Below are positions 10,411-22,822 of a DNA stretch of 64,000 nt, one piece after another (positions within the stretch are counted from its first letter, which is position 1; every line of letters starts with the position of its first letter). The stretch comes from Actinoplanes derwentensis (lineage in GTDB: Bacteria > Actinomycetota > Actinomycetes > Mycobacteriales > Micromonosporaceae): the NCBI RefSeq assembly GCF_900104725.1, contig NZ_LT629758.1, positions 1,054,001 to 1,118,000 on the forward strand. The letters run 5' to 3'. The notes below the pieces were generated by a model. That model worked only from the letters and a program-made list of their open reading frames with translations, ran no database searches and was not told where the DNA came from. The position numbers and the translations under genes were made by a program.

Positions 10411-13125
10411 TCAGCGCCGAGGTGTCTCCGGGGTGGCCAGTTTCGCGGCCACGTGGGTCCGGTCGGGGTGGCCCAGTTCGTCGAGGATCCGGTGGGCGTC
10501 CTGCCAGGCCGCACGCGCCTGGCCGGGCCGGGACGCGGCAGCGTGGGTGTCGCCGATCGCTACCAGGCTCTCCGCCACCAGCAGGCGTTCGCCGGTCTCC
10601 CGGCGTAGGGTCAGCGCCGTCTCGTGGCAGGTCACCGCGGCCCGGTCCCGGCCCAGCGCGGCGTTGATCAGCCCACAGCCGGACCACGCCACCGCCTCGC
10701 CGATGCGGTCGCCGATCGCCCGGTAGGCGGCCACCGCCGCCTGGCAGACCTCCAGCGCCCGAGGGCGGTCCCCGGTCAGGTAGTGGACGCAGGCGAACAG
10801 GTACAAGGCGAACGCCGGGCCCGCCCGCAGACCCGCCGTCACCGACAGTTGCAGCACCTCGTGGATGTGCCGCAGCGCCTCGGACTGCTGCCCGCCGCGC
10901 CAGCACAGCATGGCCAGGTCGCGGTGGGCGCGGGCCCGGCCGATCCGGTCGTCGTGCTGTTCGGCCAGGGCCAGTGCCGCACCGGCCAGGTCGGCGGCCG
11001 CATCGTGATGGCCGAGCCGGGCGTACGCGGTGCCGAGCACCCGCAGCACGTGGCTCTGCCCCACCGGATCGTCCCGTTCGCGGGCCGCGGCCAGGGCCTG
11101 CCGTAGCGCGGCGACCTCCTCGTCCCAGTAGCCGTGCCGGTCCAGGAACGTGACCAGGGCCAGGGCGAGCCGGAACGCGTGTGCCGGGAATCCGGACGCG
11201 AGCGCCTGATCGACCACGGCCAGCAGGATCGGGCGTTCGGCGGCCAGCCACGCGGCCGCGTCCCGGTCGGAGGCGAACGTCTCCGGTTGCACGCCGTCGC
11301 CGGGCGGGTCCAGGTCGACCTCGTCGCGATGCGGATAGAGCAGACCGTCCGCCGCGTACGCGCTGTGCAGGTAGTAGTCGAAGACCCGCCGCAATGGTTG
11401 CGCCGGGTCCTCCGGCTGGCGCCCGGCCGCGTACGCCCGCAGTAGATCGTGCATGCTGAACCGGCCGGCCACGTCTTCGACGACCAGGTTCGCGTCGGCG
11501 AGTTCGGCGAAGAGCGCTCCCGCCCGCCGGACCGGCACCCCCATCATCGCGGCTGCCGCCGGTGCCGTGACGGCCGGACCACAATGCAGCCCCAGCAGCC
11601 GGAACAGTGTCGCGGCATCCGCCGACAGGCCATCGAAGGACCACGAGAACACCATGCGTACGTCGATACTGCGGTCCACGCTGGACAGTGCGTCCAGCGG
11701 ATCGGTGGTGGCCCGCAGCTCGCCGGCCACGGCCGCCAGGGTGAACCGCCGGTTCACCGCGGCCCGGGTCGCGACGAGTGTCATCGCCAGCGGCAGGCCC
11801 GCGCACCGGTCGATGATCTCGTCCACCGGCGACGGTTCGGCCGCCACCTGGTCCGCGCCGAGCCGGGCGGCCAGCAACTGCCGGGACTCGGCGACGCTGA
11901 GCGGCTCCACCGGCAGCGGGTAGGCGCCGTCCGTCACCACCAGCGCCGACAGCACGTGCCGGCTGGTCACCACGGCCAGGCAGCCGGCCGAGTTCGGCAG
12001 CAGCGGGCGGACGTCGTCGGCGTCGCGCGCGTTGTCGAGCAGCACCAGCATCCGTTTGCCGGCGACCAGCCGCCGGTAGAGGCCGATCTGGGCGGCCGGG
12101 GTGACCGGAACGCTCTGCGGTGGGACGTCGAACGCCTCCAGGAACCCGCGGATCGCCTCGGCGGGTGTCGTCCCGGCCCCGCCGGGGTCGTAGCCGCGCA
12201 GGTTGACGTGCAGGATCCCGTCCGGGAACCGGCTCGCCATCGTGGTCGCCCAGTGCACGGCCAGGGTGGTCTTGCCGACGCCGGCCATGCCCGAGATGAG
12301 GATCAGCGGCCGTCCGGCGGCGGCGTCGAGCCGGTCCAGGTCGGCCCGGCGGCCGGCGAAGGCCGGAATGTCCGCCGGGAGCTGGGCGGGCCGGGGCTCG
12401 TGCACCTCGTTGCGCAGCACCCGGCGGTGGGCGTCCTGGACCAGCCGGCCCGGGTCGAGGCCCAGTTCGCTGCTCAGCCGCTCGCGGGCCTCGGTGTGCA
12501 CCCGCAGCGCCGCCTCGGTGTGCCCGCTCTCGTGCAGGGCGGTCATCAGCAGCGCCTGGAACCGTTCCCGGAACGGCTCCTCGCCGACCGCCTGGTACAG
12601 CTCGCTGACGATCCGCTGGTGGCCACCGAGCCGGAGTTCCACCTCGAACAGGTCTTCCAGCGCGGTCAGGCGGCGCTCGGCCAGCGCCGGCCCCTCCAAC
12701 TCCGCGAGGGATCCGCACGTGCCGCCGAGTGCGGGGCCGCGCCACATCGCCAGCGCTGCCCGCAGTCGTTTCGCCGCGTCGGGGTCCCGCCCGGCTGCCA
12801 GGTCGGCCCGGGCCAGCCGAGCCTCACTGTCGAACTCGGCCAGGTCGAGTTCGGCGGGATCGACGGTGATCCGGTAGCCGCCGCCGTGGTGGGCGATCTC
12901 CCGGCCGTTGAGGGCTTTGCGCAGCCGCGACACGTAGAGCTGAAGTTGCCCGCGCACTCCGGCCGGTGGCCGATCACCCCAGGTCAGGTCGGTGAGGGTG
13001 CTCTCGCGCACCACCCGGTTCGCGTTCAGCAGCAGGGCCGCGAGCACCGTCCGCTGTTTCGGGCCACCCAGCGGCACGGAACCGCCGTCCCACACCTCGA
13101 CCGGTCCGAGGAGCCGGAAACGCAT
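10411..13125 (-). CDS. AfsR/SARP-family regulator with BTAD, NB-ARC and TPR domains
   Basis: A 904-residue transcriptional activator of the AfsR type. The ATG at 13125 gives MRFRLLGPVEVWDGGSVPLG, the standard start of these proteins. Domains in order: OmpR-like winged helix (about 1-90), bacterial transcriptional activator domain (about 95-240), NB-ARC ATPase with P-loop ISGMAGVGKTTLAV (about 275-292) and DNARDADDVRPLLP, then TPR-like helices from about 600. Such proteins switch on secondary metabolism or development after an ATP-dependent change. It is divergent from the secreted FG-GAP gene at 13313, and four direct repeats lie between them. Confidence 0.9.
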   Translation of the reverse strand: MRFRLLGPVEVWDGGSVPLGGPKQRTVLAALLLNANRVVRESTLTDLTWGDRPPAGVRGQLQLYVSRLRKALNGREIAHHGGGYRITVDPAELDLAEFDSEARLARADLAAGRDPDAAKRLRAALAMWRGPALGGTCGSLAELEGPALAERRLTALEDLFEVELRLGGHQRIVSELYQAVGEEPFRERFQALLMTALHESGHTEAALRVHTEARERLSSELGLDPGRLVQDAHRRVLRNEVHEPRPAQLPADIPAFAGRRADLDRLDAAAGRPLILISGMAGVGKTTLAVHWATTMASRFPDGILHVNLRGYDPGGAGTTPAEAIRGFLEAFDVPPQSVPVTPAAQIGLYRRLVAGKRMLVLLDNARDADDVRPLLPNSAGCLAVVTSRHVLSALVVTDGAYPLPVEPLSVAESRQLLAARLGADQVAAEPSPVDEIIDRCAGLPLAMTLVATRAAVNRRFTLAAVAGELRATTDPLDALSSVDRSIDVRMVFSWSFDGLSADAATLFRLLGLHCGPAVTAPAAAAMMGVPVRRAGALFAELADANLVVEDVAGRFSMHDLLRAYAAGRQPEDPAQPLRRVFDYYLHSAYAADGLLYPHRDEVDLDPPGDGVQPETFASDRDAAAWLAAERPILLAVVDQALASGFPAHAFRLALALVTFLDRHGYWDEEVAALRQALAAARERDDPVGQSHVLRVLGTAYARLGHHDAAADLAGAALALAEQHDDRIGRARAHRDLAMLCWRGGQQSEALRHIHEVLQLSVTAGLRAGPAFALYLFACVHYLTGDRPRALEVCQAAVAAYRAIGDRIGEAVAWSGCGLINAALGRDRAAVTCHETALTLRRETGERLLVAESLVAIGDTHAAASRPGQARAAWQDAHRILDELGHPDRTHVAAKLATPETPRR

Positions 13126-13157
13126 GCCACCGCCTCGCCACGTCGACTGTCTTCTTT

Positions 13158-13215
13158 GCCGAGGAAACCACCGCCGAGGAGCCATCGCCGAGAAACCACC
13201 GCCGAGGAAACCACC
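13158..13215. repeat. Four direct repeats in the SARP / FG-GAP divergent promoter
   Basis: Four consecutive 14-15 bp units, consensus GCCGAGGAAACCACC, start at 13158, 13173, 13187 and 13201. They lie 33 bp upstream of the SARP start. SARP proteins are known to bind direct repeats, so these are candidate autoregulatory sites; that role is inferred. Confidence 0.6.
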
Positions 13216-14973: not shown

Positions 14974-16758
14974 ATGCGGCGAGTCACCCGGCTGGGCCGG
15001 CCGTCCTGTTCTTGGTCGCCGATGAGTGCTCATGATCGGGCCGAGCCGGCCGATGATGCGCCCAGCTCGATCGGTGGCCACTCGGCCCCGGGGCTGAAGG
15101 GGGACGGCTTGACCACCGTGAACGCCACCGCCAGTGCTGCCCTGCCGGTCGACGTCCTGTTGGCGCGGGCCGAGGAGAAACGGCTGGCCGGTGACTACCG
15201 GGCCGGAGGCGAGCTGGCCCGGACCGCCGCGGATCTGGCGGCCGCCACCGGGGACGCCGCCGGTGAGGCCGCCGCGCTGCGTTCCCTGGCCAACCAGTTG
15301 ATGCGGCTCGGCCGGCAGGAGGAGGCGATCGCGGCCTGCCGCAAGGCGGTCGTGACATTGGAGGCACTCGACGACCCGGTCGGCCTCTGCGAGGTGCTCA
15401 CCCTGCAGGCCATGCCGCTCATCGACCTCGGCATGCACGACGAGGCCCTGGACGTGCTGGCCACCGCCCGGGACATCGCGCAGCGCCTCGGCGACCGGGA
15501 ACTGCTCTACTGGGTGCACAACCGGACCGGCGTGGTGCACGGCCGGATGGGCGAGCACGAGCTGAGCACCACCTACCTGATGCGGGCCCTCGGGATGGCC
15601 GACGGGATGAACGCCGAGGCCCGGTTCTGCATCCTCAACAACGTCAGCGACAACGCGGTGTACGAGGTACCCCGGCTCCGTGGCCGTGGCGACCTGGAAG
15701 CCGCCGACCAGGTGCTCACCGGTGCTCTCGGCTACGTGGCCGAGGCCCTGCGCCTGGCCCGGGAGGCGCGGCATCCGTACCGGGAGGCGATCAGCCTCGA
15801 CAACCACGGGATGCTGCTGGCCCTGGCCGGTGACCTGGACGGCGCGGGCCGGTCGGTCGAGGAGTCCCGGCTGATCGCGGTCCGGGCCGGTTACCGCTCG
15901 CTGGAGTCCGCGGCACTCCAGCACCAGGCCCGGATCCGGATGATGCGCGGCCATCACACCGAGGCCATCGAGGGCCTGCGGCTGGCACTGGAGCGGGCGC
16001 ATCAGGCGGGCGAGAAGCCGATGGCGATGGAGATCTCCCAGGAGCTGTCCGAGGCACACGAACGGATCGGTGACTTCGTCGCGGCTCTGGCCCACTACCG
16101 GGACTTCCACGATCTGGAACGTGAGCTGCACAATCAGGTCGCCGCGGCCCGGGCCCGGATGGCCGCGCACCACTTCGAACTGGACAACGTCCGCCTTGAG
16201 GCGGAGAACGCGCGCCTGGAAGCGGAACTGCACCGGGCTCGCAGCGCCGAACTGGCCGCCGACAACGTGGTGTGGCAGCGCCAGGCCACCGAGGACGCGC
16301 TGACCGGCCTGCCGAACCGGCGATCGGCTGACGAACGGCTGCCGAAACTGGTCGCCGCCGGAGGCCCGGTCTGTGTGGCGGTGGCCGACGTCGACCGGTT
16401 CAAACGGGTCAACGACGAGTACGGCCACTTCATCGGCGACGAGGTGCTGCGCCGGATCGCGGCGATCCTGCTGGACCGGATCGGCGAGACCGATCTGGTG
16501 GCCCGGTTCGGTGGCGAGGAGTTCCTGATCGCGCTGCACGGCTCCGGTATCGAGGAGGCGCGGGCGCGGTGCGAGCTGCTGCGGGCGAGTGTCGCGGCGT
16601 ACCCGTGGGACACGATCGAACCCGGTCTGACCGTCACCCTCAGCATGGGCCTGACCGAGGTCACCGGCCCGGCGTCGCTGGCGGACGCGATGAGCCAGGC
16701 CGACCAGCGCCTCTACCAGGCGAAACGAAACGGGCGCAACCGGGTGCAGGCGGACTGA
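14974..16758 (+). CDS. Diguanylate cyclase with N-terminal TPR repeats
   Basis: A 594-residue cytoplasmic protein that should make cyclic di-GMP. Residues about 45-390 are helical TPR-like repeats (LRSLANQLMRLGRQEEAIAA, HDEALDVLATARDIAQRLGD). A coiled coil around 390-430 (AEELHRAR-type heptads) follows, and a GGDEF domain occupies about 440-594 with ALTGLPNRRSADERL, DVDRFKRVNDEYGHFIGDEV and the active loop ARFGGEEFLIAL. The inhibitory RxxD site before the loop is not conserved (GETD). There is no membrane segment. ATG 14974 fits a leaderless start; a TTG at 15109 behind AAGGGGGA is an alternative that would remove 45 poorly structured residues. Input is probably protein binding by the TPRs. 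Confidence 0.88.
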   Translation: MRRVTRLGRPSCSWSPMSAHDRAEPADDAPSSIGGHSAPGLKGDGLTTVNATASAALPVDVLLARAEEKRLAGDYRAGGELARTAADLAAATGDAAGEAAALRSLANQLMRLGRQEEAIAACRKAVVTLEALDDPVGLCEVLTLQAMPLIDLGMHDEALDVLATARDIAQRLGDRELLYWVHNRTGVVHGRMGEHELSTTYLMRALGMADGMNAEARFCILNNVSDNAVYEVPRLRGRGDLEAADQVLTGALGYVAEALRLAREARHPYREAISLDNHGMLLALAGDLDGAGRSVEESRLIAVRAGYRSLESAALQHQARIRMMRGHHTEAIEGLRLALERAHQAGEKPMAMEISQELSEAHERIGDFVAALAHYRDFHDLERELHNQVAAARARMAAHHFELDNVRLEAENARLEAELHRARSAELAADNVVWQRQATEDALTGLPNRRSADERLPKLVAAGGPVCVAVADVDRFKRVNDEYGHFIGDEVLRRIAAILLDRIGETDLVARFGGEEFLIALHGSGIEEARARCELLRASVAAYPWDTIEPGLTVTLSMGLTEVTGPASLADAMSQADQRLYQAKRNGRNRVQAD

Positions 16759-16914
16759 CCGTTCGGGTGACGGTGACCTGTGCGGGTAGACGGTCGTCAG
16801 TGTGTCCGTCAACACGAATCAGGCCGTTCTCCCGTATTTGTTCATCTTGCACTCGTAGCTTCGGGTGTTGCCGCAAACGGCGGGTGAACCAGAGGTGAAG
16901 GTGGAGCGCGCTCA

Positions 16915-19900
16915 GTGACCGTGACGACTGATCTGCAGCTGATCGAATTACCTGAATTGTCGCTCGCACCCGAGGCTCCGGCGGTTTTCCGCTCCAGCTC
17001 CGCCCCGCTCCGCCGCACCCTGATCGACATCCTCGACGCCACCGTGCAGGCCCACCCGGGCGCCCTCGCGATCGACACCGGCACCGCCACCCTCACCTAC
17101 CGGCAGCTCGCCACCGAGGTCGAGACGCTGCGCACCACCCTGACCGGGCACGGGATCGGCCCCGGCGACCGGGTCGGCATCCGGATCGCCTCCGGCACGG
17201 CCGACCTCTACCTGGCGATCCTGGGCGTGCTGGCGGCCGGGGCGGCGTACGTGCCGGTCGACGCCGACGATCCCGGCGAGCGTGCCGAACTCGTGTTCAC
17301 CGAAGCGCGTGTGTGCGCGGTGCTCGGGGACGGCATGAGCCTGTCGGTCCGGCGTGACCCCGGCGGCGAGACCGGCCGACCGGAGACCGCCGACGACGCC
17401 TGGATCATCTTCACCTCCGGCTCCACCGGCACCCCGAAGGGGGTGGCGGTCTCGCACGGTGCCGCCGCCGCGTTCGTCGACGCCGAGGCCCAGCTGTTCC
17501 TGGTCGACGACGACGTGGAACCTCTCGGCCCGGCCGACCGGGTGCTGGCCGGCCTGTCGGTGGCCTTCGACGCGTCCTGCGAGGAGATGTGGCTCGCCTG
17601 GCGGCACGGCGCCTGCCTGGTGCCGGCCGCGCGTTCGCTGGTCCGCAGCGGTGTCGACCTGGGCCCGTGGCTGGCCGAGCAGCGCATCAGCGTGGTGTCC
17701 ACGGTGCCGACGCTGGCCGCGCTCTGGCCGGCCGAAGCCCTCGAGGACGTCCGGCTGCTGATCTTCGGCGGCGAGGCCTGCCCGCCCGAACTCGCCGAAC
17801 GGCTGGCCGTCGAAGGCCGCGAGTTGTGGAACACCTACGGCCCGACCGAGGCGACCGTGGTGGCGTGCGCCGCCCGGCTGACCGGTGACGGCCCGGTCCG
17901 GATCGGCCTGCCCCTGGCCGGCTGGGAACTCGCCGTCGTCGACGCGGCCGGTCAACCGGTCACCATGGGTGAGACCGGTGAACTGGTCATCGGTGGTGTG
18001 GGCCTGGCCCGCTACCTGGACGAGGCCAAGGACGCCGAGAAGTTCGCCCCGCTGCCCGCTCTGGACTGGGCCCGCGCCTACCGCAGCGGCGACGTGGTCC
18101 GCGCCGAAGCCGAGGGCCTGCTGTTCCTCGGCCGCGGCGACGAGCAGGTCAAACTCGGCGGCCGCCGGATCGAGCTGGGCGAGGTGGACGCCGCCCTGCA
18201 GGCGCTGCCCGGAGTGGCCGGTGCGGCCGCCGCGGTGAAACGTACCGCCGCCGGTAATCAGCTCCTGGTCGGCTATCTGGTGCCGCACGACGCCGCCGGC
18301 TTCGACGTCGCGGCCGCCACCGCGCGCATCCGCGAACAGTTGCCGGCCGCGCTCGTGCCGCTGCTGGCCGTGATCGACGACCTGCCCACCCGCACGTCCG
18401 GAAAGGTCGACCGGGCCGCCCTGCCCTGGCCGCTGGCCGTCACCGGCCCGGCCGACGCCGAGCTGACCACGGCCGAAGAGTGGCTGGCCAGTGGCTGGGA
18501 GGAGATCCTCGGGGTTCGCCCGGCCGAGGCCGGCGCCGACTTCTTCAGCAGCGGTGGCGGCAGCCTGTCCGCGGCCCAGCTGGTGGCCTGGATCCGGCGG
18601 ACCCACCCGCAGGTGTCGGTGGCCGACATCTACCAGAACCCCCGCCTCGCCGAGATGGCGACGGTACTCGACGGCCTCGACGCGGCGACCACGGTCCGCC
18701 GCGCGGTGCGGCCGACTCCGCTGCGGGCCGGGCTGGTGCAGTTCCTGCTGATGCTGCCGATGCTGGCGCTGGTCGGGCTGCGCTGGCTGACGGTGCTGGC
18801 CGCGCTGGGCACGGTGACGGCGCTGCTGCCGACGGTCTCCTGGTGGTGGCTGGCGGTGTCCTGGCTCGTGCTGTTCAGCCCACCGGGGCGGGTGCTGCTG
18901 GCCGCCGGTGTGGCCCGGCTGCTGCTGCGCGGCGTCGGCCCCGGGAAGTACCCCCGCGGCGGTGGCGTCCACCTGCGGCTGTGGGCCGCCGAACGGTTCG
19001 CCGAGTTGACCGGTGCGACCGGTATCGGCGGGGCGGGCTGGATGACCACGTACGCGAAACTGCTCGGCGCCCGCCTCGGCCGCGACGTCGACCTGCACTC
19101 GGCACCCCCGGTCACCGGGCTGCTCAAACTCGGCCGTGGTGCCGCCATCGAACCGGAGGTGGACCTCTCCGGCTACTGGGTGGACGGTGACGTCGTCCGG
19201 GTCGGCACGGTCCGGGTCGGTGCCGGTGGCCGGGTCGGGGCGCGCAGCACCCTGATGCCCGGTGCCCGGGTCGGCAAGGGCGCGAAGATCGCCGCCGGGT
19301 CGACCGTGACCGCCGCGGTTCCGGCGAACCAGAGCTGGGCCGGTTCCCCGGCCGTCCCCGTCACCGGTAAGGGCGCCACCACCTGGCCGTCGCAGCGTCC
19401 GGCCCGGTCCCGGCTGAGCAGCCGGTCCTGGGTGGCGGCCTACAGCCTGACCGCGCAGCTGCTGGCCCTGCTGCCGGTGGTGGCCGCGCTGCCCGCGCTC
19501 GCGCTGCTCGGCTGGGGGCTGAACGGGGGCGGCCTGCTGATCGCGGTTCCGGCCGCCGCCGTCGCGTACCTGACCGGTTACGCCCTGCTCGTCCTGGTCG
19601 CCGTCCGGCTGCTGGGCATCGGCCTGCGGACCGGGTTCCACCCGGTTCAGGGGCGGGTGGCGTGGCAGGTGTGGACCACCGAGCACCTGATGGGGATGGC
19701 CCGGGTCGCGCTGTTCCCGATCTACTCCAGCCTGTTCACCCCGGTCTGGCTGCGGCTGCTCGGCGCCAAGGTGGGCCGGGGCACGGAGATCTCCACGGTG
19801 CTAGCGGTCCCGGCGATGACCACCGTCGACGACGGCGCGTTCCTGGCCGACGACACCATGGTCGCCACCTACGAACTCGACCACGGGTGGCTGCGGGTCG

Positions 19901-20802
19901 CCCCGGCCCGGATCGGCAAGCAGGCGTTCCTCGGCAACTCCGGGATGGCCGCGCCCGGCCGGTCGGTGCCGAAACGGGGTCTCGTCGGGGTGCTGTCGTC
20001 GGCGCCGCACAAGGCCAAGAAGGGCTCGTCGTGGCTGGGCGCCCCGCCGATGCCGTTGCGCCGGATCGTCGAGACCGCCGACAACGGCCGCACCTTCGAC
20101 CCGCCGGCCCGCCTCAAGGTGGCCCGGGCCGTGGTCGAACTGTGCCGGGTCGTCCCGGTGATCCTCGCCGGGGCCCTCGCCGTCCTGGTGCTGGCCGCAC
20201 TGACGCTGATCTGGGACACCGCCGGTGGCTGGGCGGCCGCGCTGGCCGCCGGGCCGGTGCTGTTCGCCGCCGCGATCACCGGCGCGCTGACCGCGACCGC
20301 CGCCAAGTGGCTGCTGGTCGGCCGGTTCCGGGCCGGGGAACGCGCGCTGTGGACGTCGTTCGTCTGGCGCAACGAGCTGGCCGACACGTTCGTCGAGGTG
20401 CTCGCGACGCCGTGGCTGTTCCGGTTCGCCGCCGGCACCCCGCTGCTGACCCTGTGGCTGCGCACGCTCGGCGCGAAGATCGGCCGTGGTGTCTGGCTGG
20501 AGACGCTGTGGCTGCCGGAGTTCGATCTGGTTCGTCTCGGCGCCGGCGCGACTGTGAACCGGGGGTGCGTTGTTCAGACCCACCTGTTCCATGATCGGAT
20601 CATGAGTATGGATGAGGTCACTCTGGCCGCGGGCGCCACACTCGGCCCGCACGGGATCGTGTTGCCCGGCGCGAGCATCGGCGCCCGGACCACCGTGGGT
20701 CCCGGCTCGCTCGTCACCCGCGGTGACGCCGTGCCCGACGACAGCCGGTGGCTCGGCAACCCGGTCGCGACCTGGCCCGCGACGGCCTCCCGCCGGGTAT
20801 GA
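16915..20802 (+). CDS. Pls/PosA-family NRPS: A-PCP with membrane-embedded hexapeptide C-terminal domains
   Basis: A 1295-residue single-module synthetase like the epsilon-poly-L-lysine synthetase of Streptomyces, which links one amino acid to itself at the membrane. The adenylation domain (about 40-510) has IIFTSGSTGTPKGVAVSH, FDASCEEMWLAW, NTYGPTEATVV and SGKVDRAALPW. A carrier domain follows with GGGSL (phosphopantetheine Ser about 550). Then there are hydrophobic pairs separated by three soluble domains with left-handed-helix-like repeats (LGARLGRDVDLHS, LGAKVGRGTEISTV, LGAKIGRGVWLETL). There is no condensation or thioesterase domain, as in Pls. Aligned by eye to PheA, the specificity residues read D-A-E-S-I-G-T-V-V-K, like lysine codes. 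GTG 16915 follows GGTGGAG. Confidence 0.88.
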   Translation: MTVTTDLQLIELPELSLAPEAPAVFRSSSAPLRRTLIDILDATVQAHPGALAIDTGTATLTYRQLATEVETLRTTLTGHGIGPGDRVGIRIASGTADLYLAILGVLAAGAAYVPVDADDPGERAELVFTEARVCAVLGDGMSLSVRRDPGGETGRPETADDAWIIFTSGSTGTPKGVAVSHGAAAAFVDAEAQLFLVDDDVEPLGPADRVLAGLSVAFDASCEEMWLAWRHGACLVPAARSLVRSGVDLGPWLAEQRISVVSTVPTLAALWPAEALEDVRLLIFGGEACPPELAERLAVEGRELWNTYGPTEATVVACAARLTGDGPVRIGLPLAGWELAVVDAAGQPVTMGETGELVIGGVGLARYLDEAKDAEKFAPLPALDWARAYRSGDVVRAEAEGLLFLGRGDEQVKLGGRRIELGEVDAALQALPGVAGAAAAVKRTAAGNQLLVGYLVPHDAAGFDVAAATARIREQLPAALVPLLAVIDDLPTRTSGKVDRAALPWPLAVTGPADAELTTAEEWLASGWEEILGVRPAEAGADFFSSGGGSLSAAQLVAWIRRTHPQVSVADIYQNPRLAEMATVLDGLDAATTVRRAVRPTPLRAGLVQFLLMLPMLALVGLRWLTVLAALGTVTALLPTVSWWWLAVSWLVLFSPPGRVLLAAGVARLLLRGVGPGKYPRGGGVHLRLWAAERFAELTGATGIGGAGWMTTYAKLLGARLGRDVDLHSAPPVTGLLKLGRGAAIEPEVDLSGYWVDGDVVRVGTVRVGAGGRVGARSTLMPGARVGKGAKIAAGSTVTAAVPANQSWAGSPAVPVTGKGATTWPSQRPARSRLSSRSWVAAYSLTAQLLALLPVVAALPALALLGWGLNGGGLLIAVPAAAVAYLTGYALLVLVAVRLLGIGLRTGFHPVQGRVAWQVWTTEHLMGMARVALFPIYSSLFTPVWLRLLGAKVGRGTEISTVLAVPAMTTVDDGAFLADDTMVATYELDHGWLRVAPARIGKQAFLGNSGMAAPGRSVPKRGLVGVLSSAPHKAKKGSSWLGAPPMPLRRIVETADNGRTFDPPARLKVARAVVELCRVVPVILAGALAVLVLAALTLIWDTAGGWAAALAAGPVLFAAAITGALTATAAKWLLVGRFRAGERALWTSFVWRNELADTFVEVLATPWLFRFAAGTPLLTLWLRTLGAKIGRGVWLETLWLPEFDLVRLGAGATVNRGCVVQTHLFHDRIMSMDEVTLAAGATLGPHGIVLPGASIGARTTVGPGSLVTRGDAVPDDSRWLGNPVATWPATASRRV

Positions 20803-22142
20803 CCCCACCTGCCGTGCCGGTCGGCGCCGCCCCGGGCGCCGACCGTTCGACCGACCCGTACCTGCCGGAGAACGGCAACGGCGGCTACCGGGTTCTGCAC
20901 TACGACCTGGAACTCGACTACCGGGTGGTGTCGAACCGGCTGGCCGGCCGGGCCGTGGTCACCGCGCGGGCCGTTCAGCCGCTGTCCCGGTTCAGCCTCG
21001 ACCTGGCCCGGCTGCAGGTCAAAGACGTGCGGGTGGACGGGCGGCCGGCCAAATTCGACCATCGGGCCGGCAAGCTCCGGATCAAACCCGAGCGCCCGAT
21101 CGGCTACGGAGCGACATTCAAGACCGAGATCCGGTACGGCGGGAAACCCGGTCCCGTCTCCGGCCGCTGGGGTGACATCGGCTGGGACGAACTCAGCGAC
21201 GGGGTGCTGGTGGCCAGTCAGCCCAACGGGTCGGCGTCCTGGTTCCCGTGCAACGACCGGCCCGACGACAAGGCCACCTTCCTGGTCACGATGACCACGG
21301 CGACGCCGTACACCGTGCTCGTCACCGGTGACCTGGTGTCCAAGAGCCGCGGGGCGGGCACCACCACCTGGGTGTACGAACGGGAGGAGCCGACCGCCCC
21401 GTACCTGATGAGTGTCCAGATCGGCCGTTACGAACTGGTCGACCTGGCCACCGGGGGAGTGCCGCAGCGGGCCGCGATCACGCCCCGGGTGCGCCGCGTC
21501 TTCCAGCACGACTTCGGCCGGCACGGCGAGATCATGGACGTGATGCAGCGGCTGTTCGGGCCGTACCCGTTCCGGGAGTACATGGTGGTCGTCGCCGACG
21601 ACGATCTGGACGACCCGATCGAGGCACAGGGCATGGCCGTCTTCGGGCGCAACCACCTCGACGGGCGGCGCACGCACGAGCGGCTGGTCGCGCACGAACT
21701 CGCCCATCAGTGGTTCGGCAACAGTCTGACCGTCGCCGACTGGCGGCACATCTGGCTCAACGAGGGCTTCGCGACGTACGCCGAATGGTTGTGGTCCGGC
21801 GCCTCCGGCGGCCCCTCGACCAACGCCCACGCCACCGGATGGCACGCCTGGCTCGCGGCCCACCCGGCGAACGTCGTGGTCGCCGACCCGGGTGTCGACC
21901 GGATGTTCGACCCGCTGGTCTACAAGCGTGGCGCGCTGACCCTGCACGCCCTGCGCGCAAGCGTCGGCGAGCAGGCGTTCTTCGCGCTGCTGCGCACGTG
22001 GGTCGCCGAACACCGGCACCGGACCGTGACGACCACCCAGTTCCGCGAACACGCCGCCCGTTATGCGACCGGGTCCCTCGACGGCCTGTTCACCGCGTGG
22101 CTGGACCGTCCCGCGCTGCCGCCGCTGCCCCGAATCCTCTGA
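20799..22142 (+). CDS. Short M1-family zinc aminopeptidase coupled to the NRPS
   Basis: A 447-residue metallopeptidase. The N-terminal beta domain (YDLELDYRVVSNRLAGRAVV) is followed by the catalytic domain with HELAHQWFGNSL (zinc motif, about residue 299) and NEGFATYAEWL, giving the third ligand Glu 22 residues later. The exopeptidase GAMEN motif is replaced by EAQGMAVFG. It lacks the long C-terminal helical domain of classic aminopeptidase N. No signal peptide is visible. The ATG at 20799 overlaps the NRPS stop codon (ATGA), so the two proteins are made together. By analogy with epsilon-poly-lysine systems it may trim or degrade the polymer, giving self-protection; that is inferred. Confidence 0.85.
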   Translation: MTPPAVPVGAAPGADRSTDPYLPENGNGGYRVLHYDLELDYRVVSNRLAGRAVVTARAVQPLSRFSLDLARLQVKDVRVDGRPAKFDHRAGKLRIKPERPIGYGATFKTEIRYGGKPGPVSGRWGDIGWDELSDGVLVASQPNGSASWFPCNDRPDDKATFLVTMTTATPYTVLVTGDLVSKSRGAGTTTWVYEREEPTAPYLMSVQIGRYELVDLATGGVPQRAAITPRVRRVFQHDFGRHGEIMDVMQRLFGPYPFREYMVVVADDDLDDPIEAQGMAVFGRNHLDGRRTHERLVAHELAHQWFGNSLTVADWRHIWLNEGFATYAEWLWSGASGGPSTNAHATGWHAWLAAHPANVVVADPGVDRMFDPLVYKRGALTLHALRASVGEQAFFALLRTWVAEHRHRTVTTTQFREHAARYATGSLDGLFTAWLDRPALPPLPRIL

Positions 22143-22192
22143 ACTTTCCCCAATCCGGCCACCGGCGACGTGTGCCCGGCGACGATGGAGGC

Positions 22193-22822
22193 ATGCTCTC
22201 CACCGCCGAACGCTACGACTGGTTTCGTAAGCAGTACGCCCGGTTCGCCGACTCCTACTGCCTGACCCTGGTCGGGGAACTCACGCTGGACGAGGCGATC
22301 CAGCGCATCGGGGGCGAGAACCCCCAGGCCGTACCGGGTCCGCTGGTCGTGCACGGGCTGCCGGCCGAGGTCGTCGCCGAACTGCCCGGCGACCTGGGTC
22401 CGGTCTTCGAACGGCTGGAGACCGAGCGGGTCGTCGCCGTTACCCAGCTGCCCGGCTGGGTGCTGCTGGTCGAGTGGGGTGGCGACTTCCTCGGCCGGGA
22501 GGGCGCGGTCCGGCTCTCCCGGGGCACCACCCTGGTCGCGCACGGTAACGAACAGAGCGGGGCGCATTTCCTGTGGATGCAGGACGGGGCGGTCCAGCTC
22601 GCCTTCGACCCGGCGCACGCCGGACTGCGGACCGGGGAGAAGGCCGACTCGCTGGTGCAGATCATGGCCGAGGTCGGGTTCGTGCTGGAGGCGGGCGGGC
22701 ACCGGGCCGGGCCGCACGATCCGGCGGCCTCCCTGGCGCTCGCGGACTTCCTCACCGGCCTGCGACTCGGGCCGTCGGTGCTGCACGAGGCGGTCTATGT
22801 CTGCGTGACCCCCACCGAGTGA
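22193..22822 (+). CDS. DUF6461-type protein
   Basis: A 209-residue soluble protein beginning MLSTAERYDWFRKQYARFAD with features of the actinobacterial DUF6461 family: SYCLTLVGELTLDEAIQRIG, GWVLLVEWGGDFLGREGAVRL and FLWMQDGAVQLAFDP. Its function is unknown. The start is ATG 22193. Only GGAG very close to the ATG is present, while GACGAT lies exactly 6 nt before it, so it may be leaderless. It is 50 nt downstream of the M1 peptidase on the same strand but probably has its own promoter. Confidence 0.65.
   Translation: MLSTAERYDWFRKQYARFADSYCLTLVGELTLDEAIQRIGGENPQAVPGPLVVHGLPAEVVAELPGDLGPVFERLETERVVAVTQLPGWVLLVEWGGDFLGREGAVRLSRGTTLVAHGNEQSGAHFLWMQDGAVQLAFDPAHAGLRTGEKADSLVQIMAEVGFVLEAGGHRAGPHDPAASLALADFLTGLRLGPSVLHEAVYVCVTPTE

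What the first reader, a model, noticed from the sequence alone, without database searches (positions are those of the whole stretch)
16915..22142. Poly-amino-acid synthetase (Pls/PosA type) coupled to an M1 peptidase, with a lysine-like code
The 1295-residue NRPS has one A domain, one PCP and then membrane segments alternating with three hexapeptide-like domains, and no C or TE domain. That is the architecture of epsilon-poly-L-lysine synthetase. Aligning the A domain by eye to PheA gives D-A-E-S-I-G-T-V-V-K at the ten specificity positions, close to the lysine signatures I recall (DAE[D/S]IG[T/S]V[V/A]K). The next gene overlaps by ATGA and encodes a short M1 zinc peptidase with an altered GAMEN motif. 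This suggests synthesis and trimming or self-protection by one transcript. If so, the host may make poly-lysine or a related cationic polymer.
Basis: partly seen in the sequence, partly recalled or inferred. Interest (0 to 1): 0.85.

Follow-up and report, generated by a model that had tools for sequence, protein, structure and literature searches.

The report
Poly-lysine synthetase with partner peptidase
This pair of genes very probably makes the antimicrobial polymer epsilon-poly-lysine and a peptidase that cuts it, a known kind of gene pair, but here and in most relatives examined the peptidase appears to stay inside the cell instead of being exported as in the best-studied producer.

Summary
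Window 16915-20802 (+) encodes a 1295-residue A-PCP synthetase with six hydrophobic segments and three acyltransferase-like domains. A short M1 zinc peptidase follows with an ATGA overlap (20799-22142). The ten-residue code is DAESIGTVVK, identical to the solved epsilon-poly-L-lysine synthetase A domain (PDB 7wew) and to the functionally proven Corynebacterium variabile Pls; poly-ornithine- and poly-diaminobutyrate-type relatives carry other codes. The protein is 57% identical to C. variabile Pls and about 30-34% identical to those others. The M1 gene lies beside pls in 80 of 80 homologous loci and in 63 of 63 pls-bearing genomes of the host's genus; the 4 without pls lack that M1. The pls-pldII operon is published, and an Actinoplanes epsilon-poly-lysine cluster was already called by antiSMASH. 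One difference I did not find in the papers seen: S. albulus-type PldII has a Tat-like leader and an ENQT motif, whereas the M1 here and 102 others of 105 examined show no leader by my test, and 99 of 104 read E-A at the GAMEN site. I call it a new member of a known kind with a PldII-like, probably intracellular partner. Nothing biochemical was tested.

The parts
16915..20802 (+). pls-type synthetase, 1295 aa: A domain (about 34-508), PCP (522-584), then three units of hydrophobic helices plus an acyltransferase-like domain
17569..18405 (+). stretch holding the ten specificity residues D219 A220 E223 S262 I283 G285 T307 V315 V316 K497
   Evidence: same letters in 7wew and in C. variabile Pls
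18478..18666 (+). peptidyl carrier domain with GGGSL serine site
18682..20799 (+). C-terminal part (TIGR02353), six hydrophobic segments and three hexapeptide-like domains
20799..20802 (+). ATGA: start codon of the peptidase gene overlapping the stop codon of pls
   Evidence: a PMC4361855 passage states a 4-bp overlap for pls-pldII in S. albulus
20799..22142 (+). PldII-like M1 zinc peptidase, 447 aa from ATG 20799, no leader peptide detected, GAMEN replaced by DPIEA

Best explanation
The two genes form a pls-pldII-type operon in an actinomycete whose nearest named relative at this locus is Actinoplanes italicus (86%). The synthetase adenylates L-lysine with its A domain, loads it on its PCP, and its membrane-embedded tandem domains join lysines through epsilon-amino groups to make epsilon-poly-L-lysine, which leaves the cell. 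The M1 peptidase, whose gene overlaps pls, hydrolyses the polymer, for self-protection, length control or lysine recovery. Shown here: domain anatomy, code identity, clade membership, co-occurrence and adjacency, intact zinc site, no leader detected. Inferred: lysine as the substrate (strong), epsilon linkage and export (from proven relatives), epsilon-poly-lysine as the M1 substrate (from PldII), intracellular action of this M1 (from the missing leader).
For: Best PDB match is 7wew, epsilon-poly-L-lysine synthase A domain, 674 bits against 352 for the next; 330 of 477 aligned A-domain residues identical. Code DAESIGTVVK in the window, in 7wew, in C. variabile Pls, in 80 of 80 loci L008-L087 and in 29 of 29 same-genus loci read (of 62 other pls-bearing genomes of the genus); seven other-clade synthetases have other codes, including DMEHNGTVSK for A. 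baumannii PosA and DFECLSAVTK beside dat and ask genes. 57.2% identity over 1326 positions to C. variabile Pls, whose product was shown to be epsilon-poly-lysine (PMC8117764, parts 1 and 2 of 4 read). M1 beside pls in 80 of 80 loci and in 63 of 63 pls-bearing genomes of the genus; the other 4 of 67 lack both. PldII, next to pls, degrades the polymer (PMC9223678 passages).
Against: No biochemistry. C. variabile itself made no polymer under its own control (PMC8117764), so the host may be silent. The M1 differs from the PldII type in leader and GAMEN motif and is only 42-43% identical to it, so its substrate is less certain than the synthetase's. A review states that chain-length diversity comes from the synthetase and not from the degrading enzyme (PMC9205021 passage), against a length-control role. 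Three relatives with the lysine code gave no M1 hit: L126 (a cysteine-synthase-family gene lies upstream), L127 and L099; L099 holds only about 1.5 kb downstream. So the M1 is not strictly obligatory.
Confidence: 0.8

Rival explanations
1. The synthetase makes another cationic homopolymer (ornithine, diaminobutyrate, beta-lysine) despite the lysine-type code.
For: Codes predict; they do not prove. Relatives of the same architecture make poly-ornithine (PMC10522769, passages).
Against: Position 2 is Ala, as in Lys-activating members, against Met in PosA and Phe in the PDAP/PDAB type (PMC10522769); full code identity with two proven lysine enzymes; the immediate neighbours are an M1 and a TPR-GGDEF gene, not dat or ask; about 30-34% identity to PosA- and Dab-type enzymes.
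Confidence: 0.06
2. The M1 peptidase is an ordinary aminopeptidase that happens to sit in the operon and does not act on the polymer.
For: No leader detected in it, while the S. albulus enzyme acts at the cell surface (PMC9205021); GAMEN altered; only 42-43% identical to PldII-type M1s.
Against: Co-occurrence in the genus without exception (63 with both, 4 with neither); beside pls in 80 of 80 loci; M1 tree broadly parallel to the synthetase tree by eye.
Confidence: 0.15
3. The operon is intact but silent or non-functional in this host.
For: C. variabile gave no polymer and no detected Pls protein in its own culture (PMC8117764); no consensus promoter found in 16700-22500, though such scans do not cover other promoter types.
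Against: A relative at high identity is kept in 63 of 67 genomes of the genus (in one of them, G926, the match is in four pieces), which dead genes would not show.
Confidence: 0.2

Closest known systems
epsilon-poly-L-lysine synthetase Pls with PldII, Streptomyces albulus
   Same: A-PCP-TM/C1-C3 architecture, same ten-residue code, following M1 peptidase gene with 4-bp overlap
   Different: Synthetase 56% identical over 1298 positions to the S. albulus-type copy L116; the M1 of that type has a Tat-like leader and ENQT motif, this M1 shows no leader and reads DPIEA
Corynebacterium variabile Pls and its neighbouring peptidase
   Same: Same code, 57.2% identity, M1 next door without a detected leader and with IPLEAQG motif
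   Different: M1 proteins only 41% identical; the family differs in the tool's grouping (f2 against f1)
Actinoplanes sp. SE50/110 NAPAA cluster 'epsilon-poly-L-lysine'
   Same: antiSMASH called such a cluster in this genus (PMC11626248 passages)
   Different: Table entry only in the passages seen; no gene-level account or product test of that cluster seen
PosA, delta-poly-L-ornithine synthetase, Acinetobacter baumannii
   Same: Same overall architecture and Pls/PosA family
   Different: Code DMEHNGTVSK, 29.8% identity over 1327 positions, no M1 hit beside it

Membership tests
Pls (epsilon-poly-L-lysine synthetase) | TIGR02353 C-terminal domain above curated cut-off | tested here: met
   703.7 against 423.1 bits
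Pls (epsilon-poly-L-lysine synthetase) | one A domain, one PCP, no condensation or thioesterase domain | tested here: met
   PCP serine motif
Pls (epsilon-poly-L-lysine synthetase) | six membrane segments separating three acyltransferase-like domains | tested here: met
   by hydropathy and a predicted model only, Pfam alone saw just the first domain
Pls (epsilon-poly-L-lysine synthetase) | specificity code of proven Lys enzymes | tested here: met
   DAESIGTVVK equal to 7wew and C. variabile Pls
Pls (epsilon-poly-L-lysine synthetase) | groups with proven Pls and apart from other polymer synthetases in a tree | tested here: met
   (SH-aLRT 100, quick method; long outgroup branches flagged by the program)
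Pls (epsilon-poly-L-lysine synthetase) | operon with an M1 peptidase gene | tested here: met
Pls (epsilon-poly-L-lysine synthetase) | activates L-lysine and makes epsilon-linked polymer | not testable with these tools
   needs enzyme assay or culture
PldII (epsilon-poly-lysine-degrading M1 peptidase) | M1 family with HExxH-18-E zinc site | tested here: met
PldII (epsilon-poly-lysine-degrading M1 peptidase) | gene coupled to pls by a 4-bp overlap | tested here: met
   S. albulus statement in PMC4361855
PldII (epsilon-poly-lysine-degrading M1 peptidase) | located on the outside of the membrane | tested here: not met
   no signal-like N-terminus from any of 3 start codons (hydropathy rule, no trained predictor); S. 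albulus-type M1s L116 and L117 have a Tat-like leader by eye
PldII (epsilon-poly-lysine-degrading M1 peptidase) | degrades epsilon-poly-lysine | not testable with these tools
   needs assay
PosA (delta-poly-L-ornithine synthetase) | code D-M-E-H-N-G-T-V-S-K | tested here: not met
   code from PMC10522769
gamma-poly-diaminobutyrate synthetase | dat and ask genes directly beside the synthetase | tested here: not met
   immediate neighbours are an M1 and a TPR-GGDEF gene (genes further off were not scanned); dat and ask lie beside L123

The most novel reading that the evidence does not exclude
Most pls operons, including this one and the proven C. variabile one, pair the synthetase not with an exported PldII but with a separate lineage of leaderless M1 enzymes (P-x-E-A in place of GAMEN) that work inside the cell, editing or destroying polymer that appears on the cytoplasmic side. 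The pair is close to a core trait of this genus, so the polymer would have a regular physiological or ecological role there and not be an occasional antibiotic.
Probability: 0.35. Interest if true: 0.55.

Novelty: new member of a known kind. Interest (0 to 1): 0.38.

Why it matters
It places a food-preservative polymer pathway as a near-universal trait of a genus, inferred to be Actinoplanes, whose members form sporangia, and for which I saw no product reported in the passages read. If the partner peptidase is really intracellular in most lineages, the picture of self-protection by a surface enzyme applies to only a part of the family, and how the polymer crosses the membrane and how its length is set become directly testable.

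Tried and rejected
Upstream link: the TPR-GGDEF gene 14974-16758 ends 156 bases before pls, which suggested c-di-GMP control. In the 80 loci only 5 show any match to it (14-46% of its length, two of the five downstream of pls), none a full-length relative (several loci hold less than 10 kb upstream), so I dropped it. A consensus promoter and terminator scan found nothing. TIGR02353-like proteins far from polymer synthetases: the same-phylum search gave 25 of 396 genomes with a match, the window's own genome included. Among its loci L088-L115, 21 resemble the window gene (57-63% identity) and 7 do not (L093, L110-L115; 23-32%), and those 7 show no M1 hit in the 2-5 kb held.

Rows dropped: the tree used 38 of 123 synthetase rows on hand; that used 36 of 124 and left out the two decoys L119 and L121, which had long branches. 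The M1 tree used 25 of 106 rows. For the structure job 29 of the 34 sequences first sent were used. Results against a tidy story: the 7wew group splits from all the other Pls rows, with the window among those others; when C. variabile is added the base of the Pls clade is unresolved, so the window is not shown to be nearer to either proven enzyme. My automatic leader test flagged 1 of 105 M1s (L117); L116, 74% identical to it, has the same leader by eye but falls under my threshold.
Full report
The observation. The 1295-residue ORF at 16915-20802 (+) and the M1 peptidase ORF ending at 22142 are as described. Pfam gives one AMP-binding domain, one carrier domain and one hexapeptide match, and no condensation or thioesterase domain. 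NCBIfam gives TIGR02353, 'Pls/PosA family', at 703.7 bits against a cut-off of 423.1. In the whole genome (10.65 Mb, one contig) this is the only match over that cut-off, of 7 matches. Six hydrophobic segments lie in three pairs after residue 600, one of them at my threshold. In an AlphaFold2 model of residues 590-1295 built on 29 sequences (mean pLDDT 83.4, pTM 0.85) I read the same unit three times, long helices followed by a beta-helix-like run. Its best PDB matches are hexapeptide acetyltransferases (Foldseek E 1.7e-5 at best, low TM-scores, aligned ranges not given). That agrees with the published C1-C3 and TM1-TM6 layout (PMC8117764).

The code. Read from an alignment, the ten positions are D219 A220 E223 S262 I283 G285 T307 V315 V316 K497, that is DAESIGTVVK. 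The PheA numbering behind these positions rests on recalled motif anchors (FDxS, NxYGPTE and the A10 lysine); PheA itself was not put in the alignment. The read-out is checked by the A. baumannii enzyme, which gives the very code that PMC10522769 prints for PosA. The same letters as in the window stand in 7wew, in 80 of 80 loci L008-L087, in 29 of 29 same-genus loci read (62 other genomes of the genus have the gene) and in the C. variabile enzyme. Seven other-clade synthetases have other codes: A. baumannii DMEHNGTVSK (for the printed code), Sphingomonas DMEHNGTVTK, Rhizobium DLEDIGTVVK, Azospirillum DLEDIGSVVK, Streptomyces NBC_01527 DFECLSAVTK next to dat and ask genes, R. erythropolis DFEYLGTVTK and Streptomyces NBC_00648 DSECYGGVTK. 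The PosA paper says that Lys-activating members have Ala, PosA Met and PDAP/PDAB enzymes Phe at the second position; the window has Ala.

Kinship. The best solved relative is 7wew at 674 bits, the next 352; 330 of 477 aligned A-domain residues are identical. C. variabile Pls was sought by a 28-base stretch of a published primer: 0 of 301 genomes of one family, then 1 of 242 of one genus. The reverse primer of the same paper also matches at the stop codon (my comparison by eye), and its 50.9% identity to the S. albulus-type copy L116 fits the published 51%. The window protein is 57.2% identical to that enzyme over 1326 positions, 56.3% to L116 over 1298, 29.8% to PosA over 1327 and 33.8% to the Dab-type L123 over 1351. 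Trees put the window in the Pls clade with SH-aLRT 100 (quick method); the outgroup branches are long and flagged by the program, and the order of branches inside the clade is not settled.

The partner gene. The M1 gene follows pls in 80 of 80 loci L008-L087, most often directly; in L060 and L074 some 0.65 kb lies between. Of the 21 Pls-like loci among the same-phylum genomes, 20 show it within the 5 kb held. In the host's genus 63 of 67 genomes, the host included, have the synthetase and 67 of 67 some M1 relative, but the close M1 (69% identity or more; the next are at 43% or less) is in exactly the 63 with the synthetase. In all 63 it lies on the same strand and contig, and in 62 within 210 bases, the exception being G914 at 1.4 kb; the synthetase match of G926 is in four pieces. 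In the window the two genes overlap as ATGA, as stated for pls-pldII of S. albulus (PMC4361855). Of 104 neighbouring pairs examined by script, at least 39 have a 4-base overlap and 13 a 1-base one (L116 was missed by the script and has the 4-base overlap). Exceptions: L099, L126 and L127, which have the lysine code, gave no M1 hit; L099 holds only about 1.5 kb downstream.

How the M1 differs from PldII. The M1 of L116 is 1404 nt with its stop codon, the length given for pldII, and the residues that PMC9223678 names in PldII (D44, T45, D173, K174, T194, E281) all stand at those numbers in it, so it is a good stand-in for PldII. L116 and L117 start MTRCSRRALLRG(A/V)ALLPLAA, a Tat-like leader (label recalled, by eye), and read V-E-N-Q-T at the GAMEN site. 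PldII activity is reported on the outside of the membrane (PMC9205021 passages). The window M1 starts MTPPAVPVGAAPGADRSTDPYLP and shows no signal-like N-terminus from any of its three start codons; of 105 M1s (104 loci, the window's own among them, plus C. variabile) the automatic test flagged 1 and I add L116 by eye, so 2 of 105. At the GAMEN site 99 of 104 read E-A, 2 E-S, 2 E-N (L116, L117) and 1 falls out of register. The zinc site is intact in all 104. The host genome holds two short M1s with lipoprotein-like leaders by eye elsewhere (L168, L170), so an exported enzyme could still guard the outside. In the M1 tree, rooted on them, the two leader-bearing rows split from the other 23 with support 100.

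Mechanism. Lysine activation, carrier loading and epsilon-linked polymerisation by the membrane domains follow from the proven relatives; the code identity is the strongest evidence here. The peptidase most likely cuts the polymer. Repression of pldII in S. albulus gave longer polymer and lowered tolerance (PMC9223678 passages), though a review holds that chain length is set by the synthetase and not by the degrading enzyme (PMC9205021 passages). Whether the window's M1 acts on the polymer from inside the cell is inference.

Novelty. The gene pair is published, and antiSMASH had called an epsilon-poly-lysine cluster in Actinoplanes sp. SE50/110 (PMC11626248 passages). That the host's genus is Actinoplanes is inferred from the nearest named loci. 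I saw no mention of a leaderless M1 lineage in the listings of the paper searches, nor in the papers looked into (PMC8117764 parts 1 and 2 of 4; passages of PMC9223678, PMC4361855, PMC9205021, PMC11626248 and PMC13010261; passages and section 10 of PMC10522769). The library holds open-licence papers only, and the primary PldII paper is not held.

Noticed in passing
L121 (Streptomyces sp. NBC_00648 plasmid, 82504-92433): A synthetase of this architecture with code DSECYGGVTK, the code PMC10522769 prints for a Bdellovibrionales enzyme whose A domain preferred L-arginine; three more plasmid records of about 220 kb listed match alike (H32-H34, codes not read). A possible arginine polymer synthetase in Streptomyces.
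   Followed up: partly
L126 (Mycobacterium avium plasmid pHP17a): A Pls with the lysine code lies on a plasmid downstream of a cysteine-synthase-family gene; no M1 hit, and an IS1601 transposase gene follows on the other strand.
   Followed up: partly
G000:C1:1070915-1076139 and same-genus genomes: pls plus its M1 is present in 63 of 67 genomes of the host's genus, against 25 of 396 genomes drawn from the phylum with any strong TIGR02353 match.
   Followed up: yes
window 14974-16758 (+): A TPR-GGDEF (diguanylate cyclase-like) gene ends 156 bases before pls; no full-length relative near pls in the 80 loci.
   Followed up: partly
L093, L112, L113: Open frames of 946, 919 and 860 aa with a full TIGR02353 match but no A-domain code aligned: perhaps the membrane polymerisation part without its own adenylation domain.
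   Followed up: no
window 10411-13185 (-): By eye in the ORF listing, a regulator resembling the SARP/AfsR type (name recalled, not tested); partial matches occur in 8 of the 80 loci, at no fixed place.
   Followed up: no
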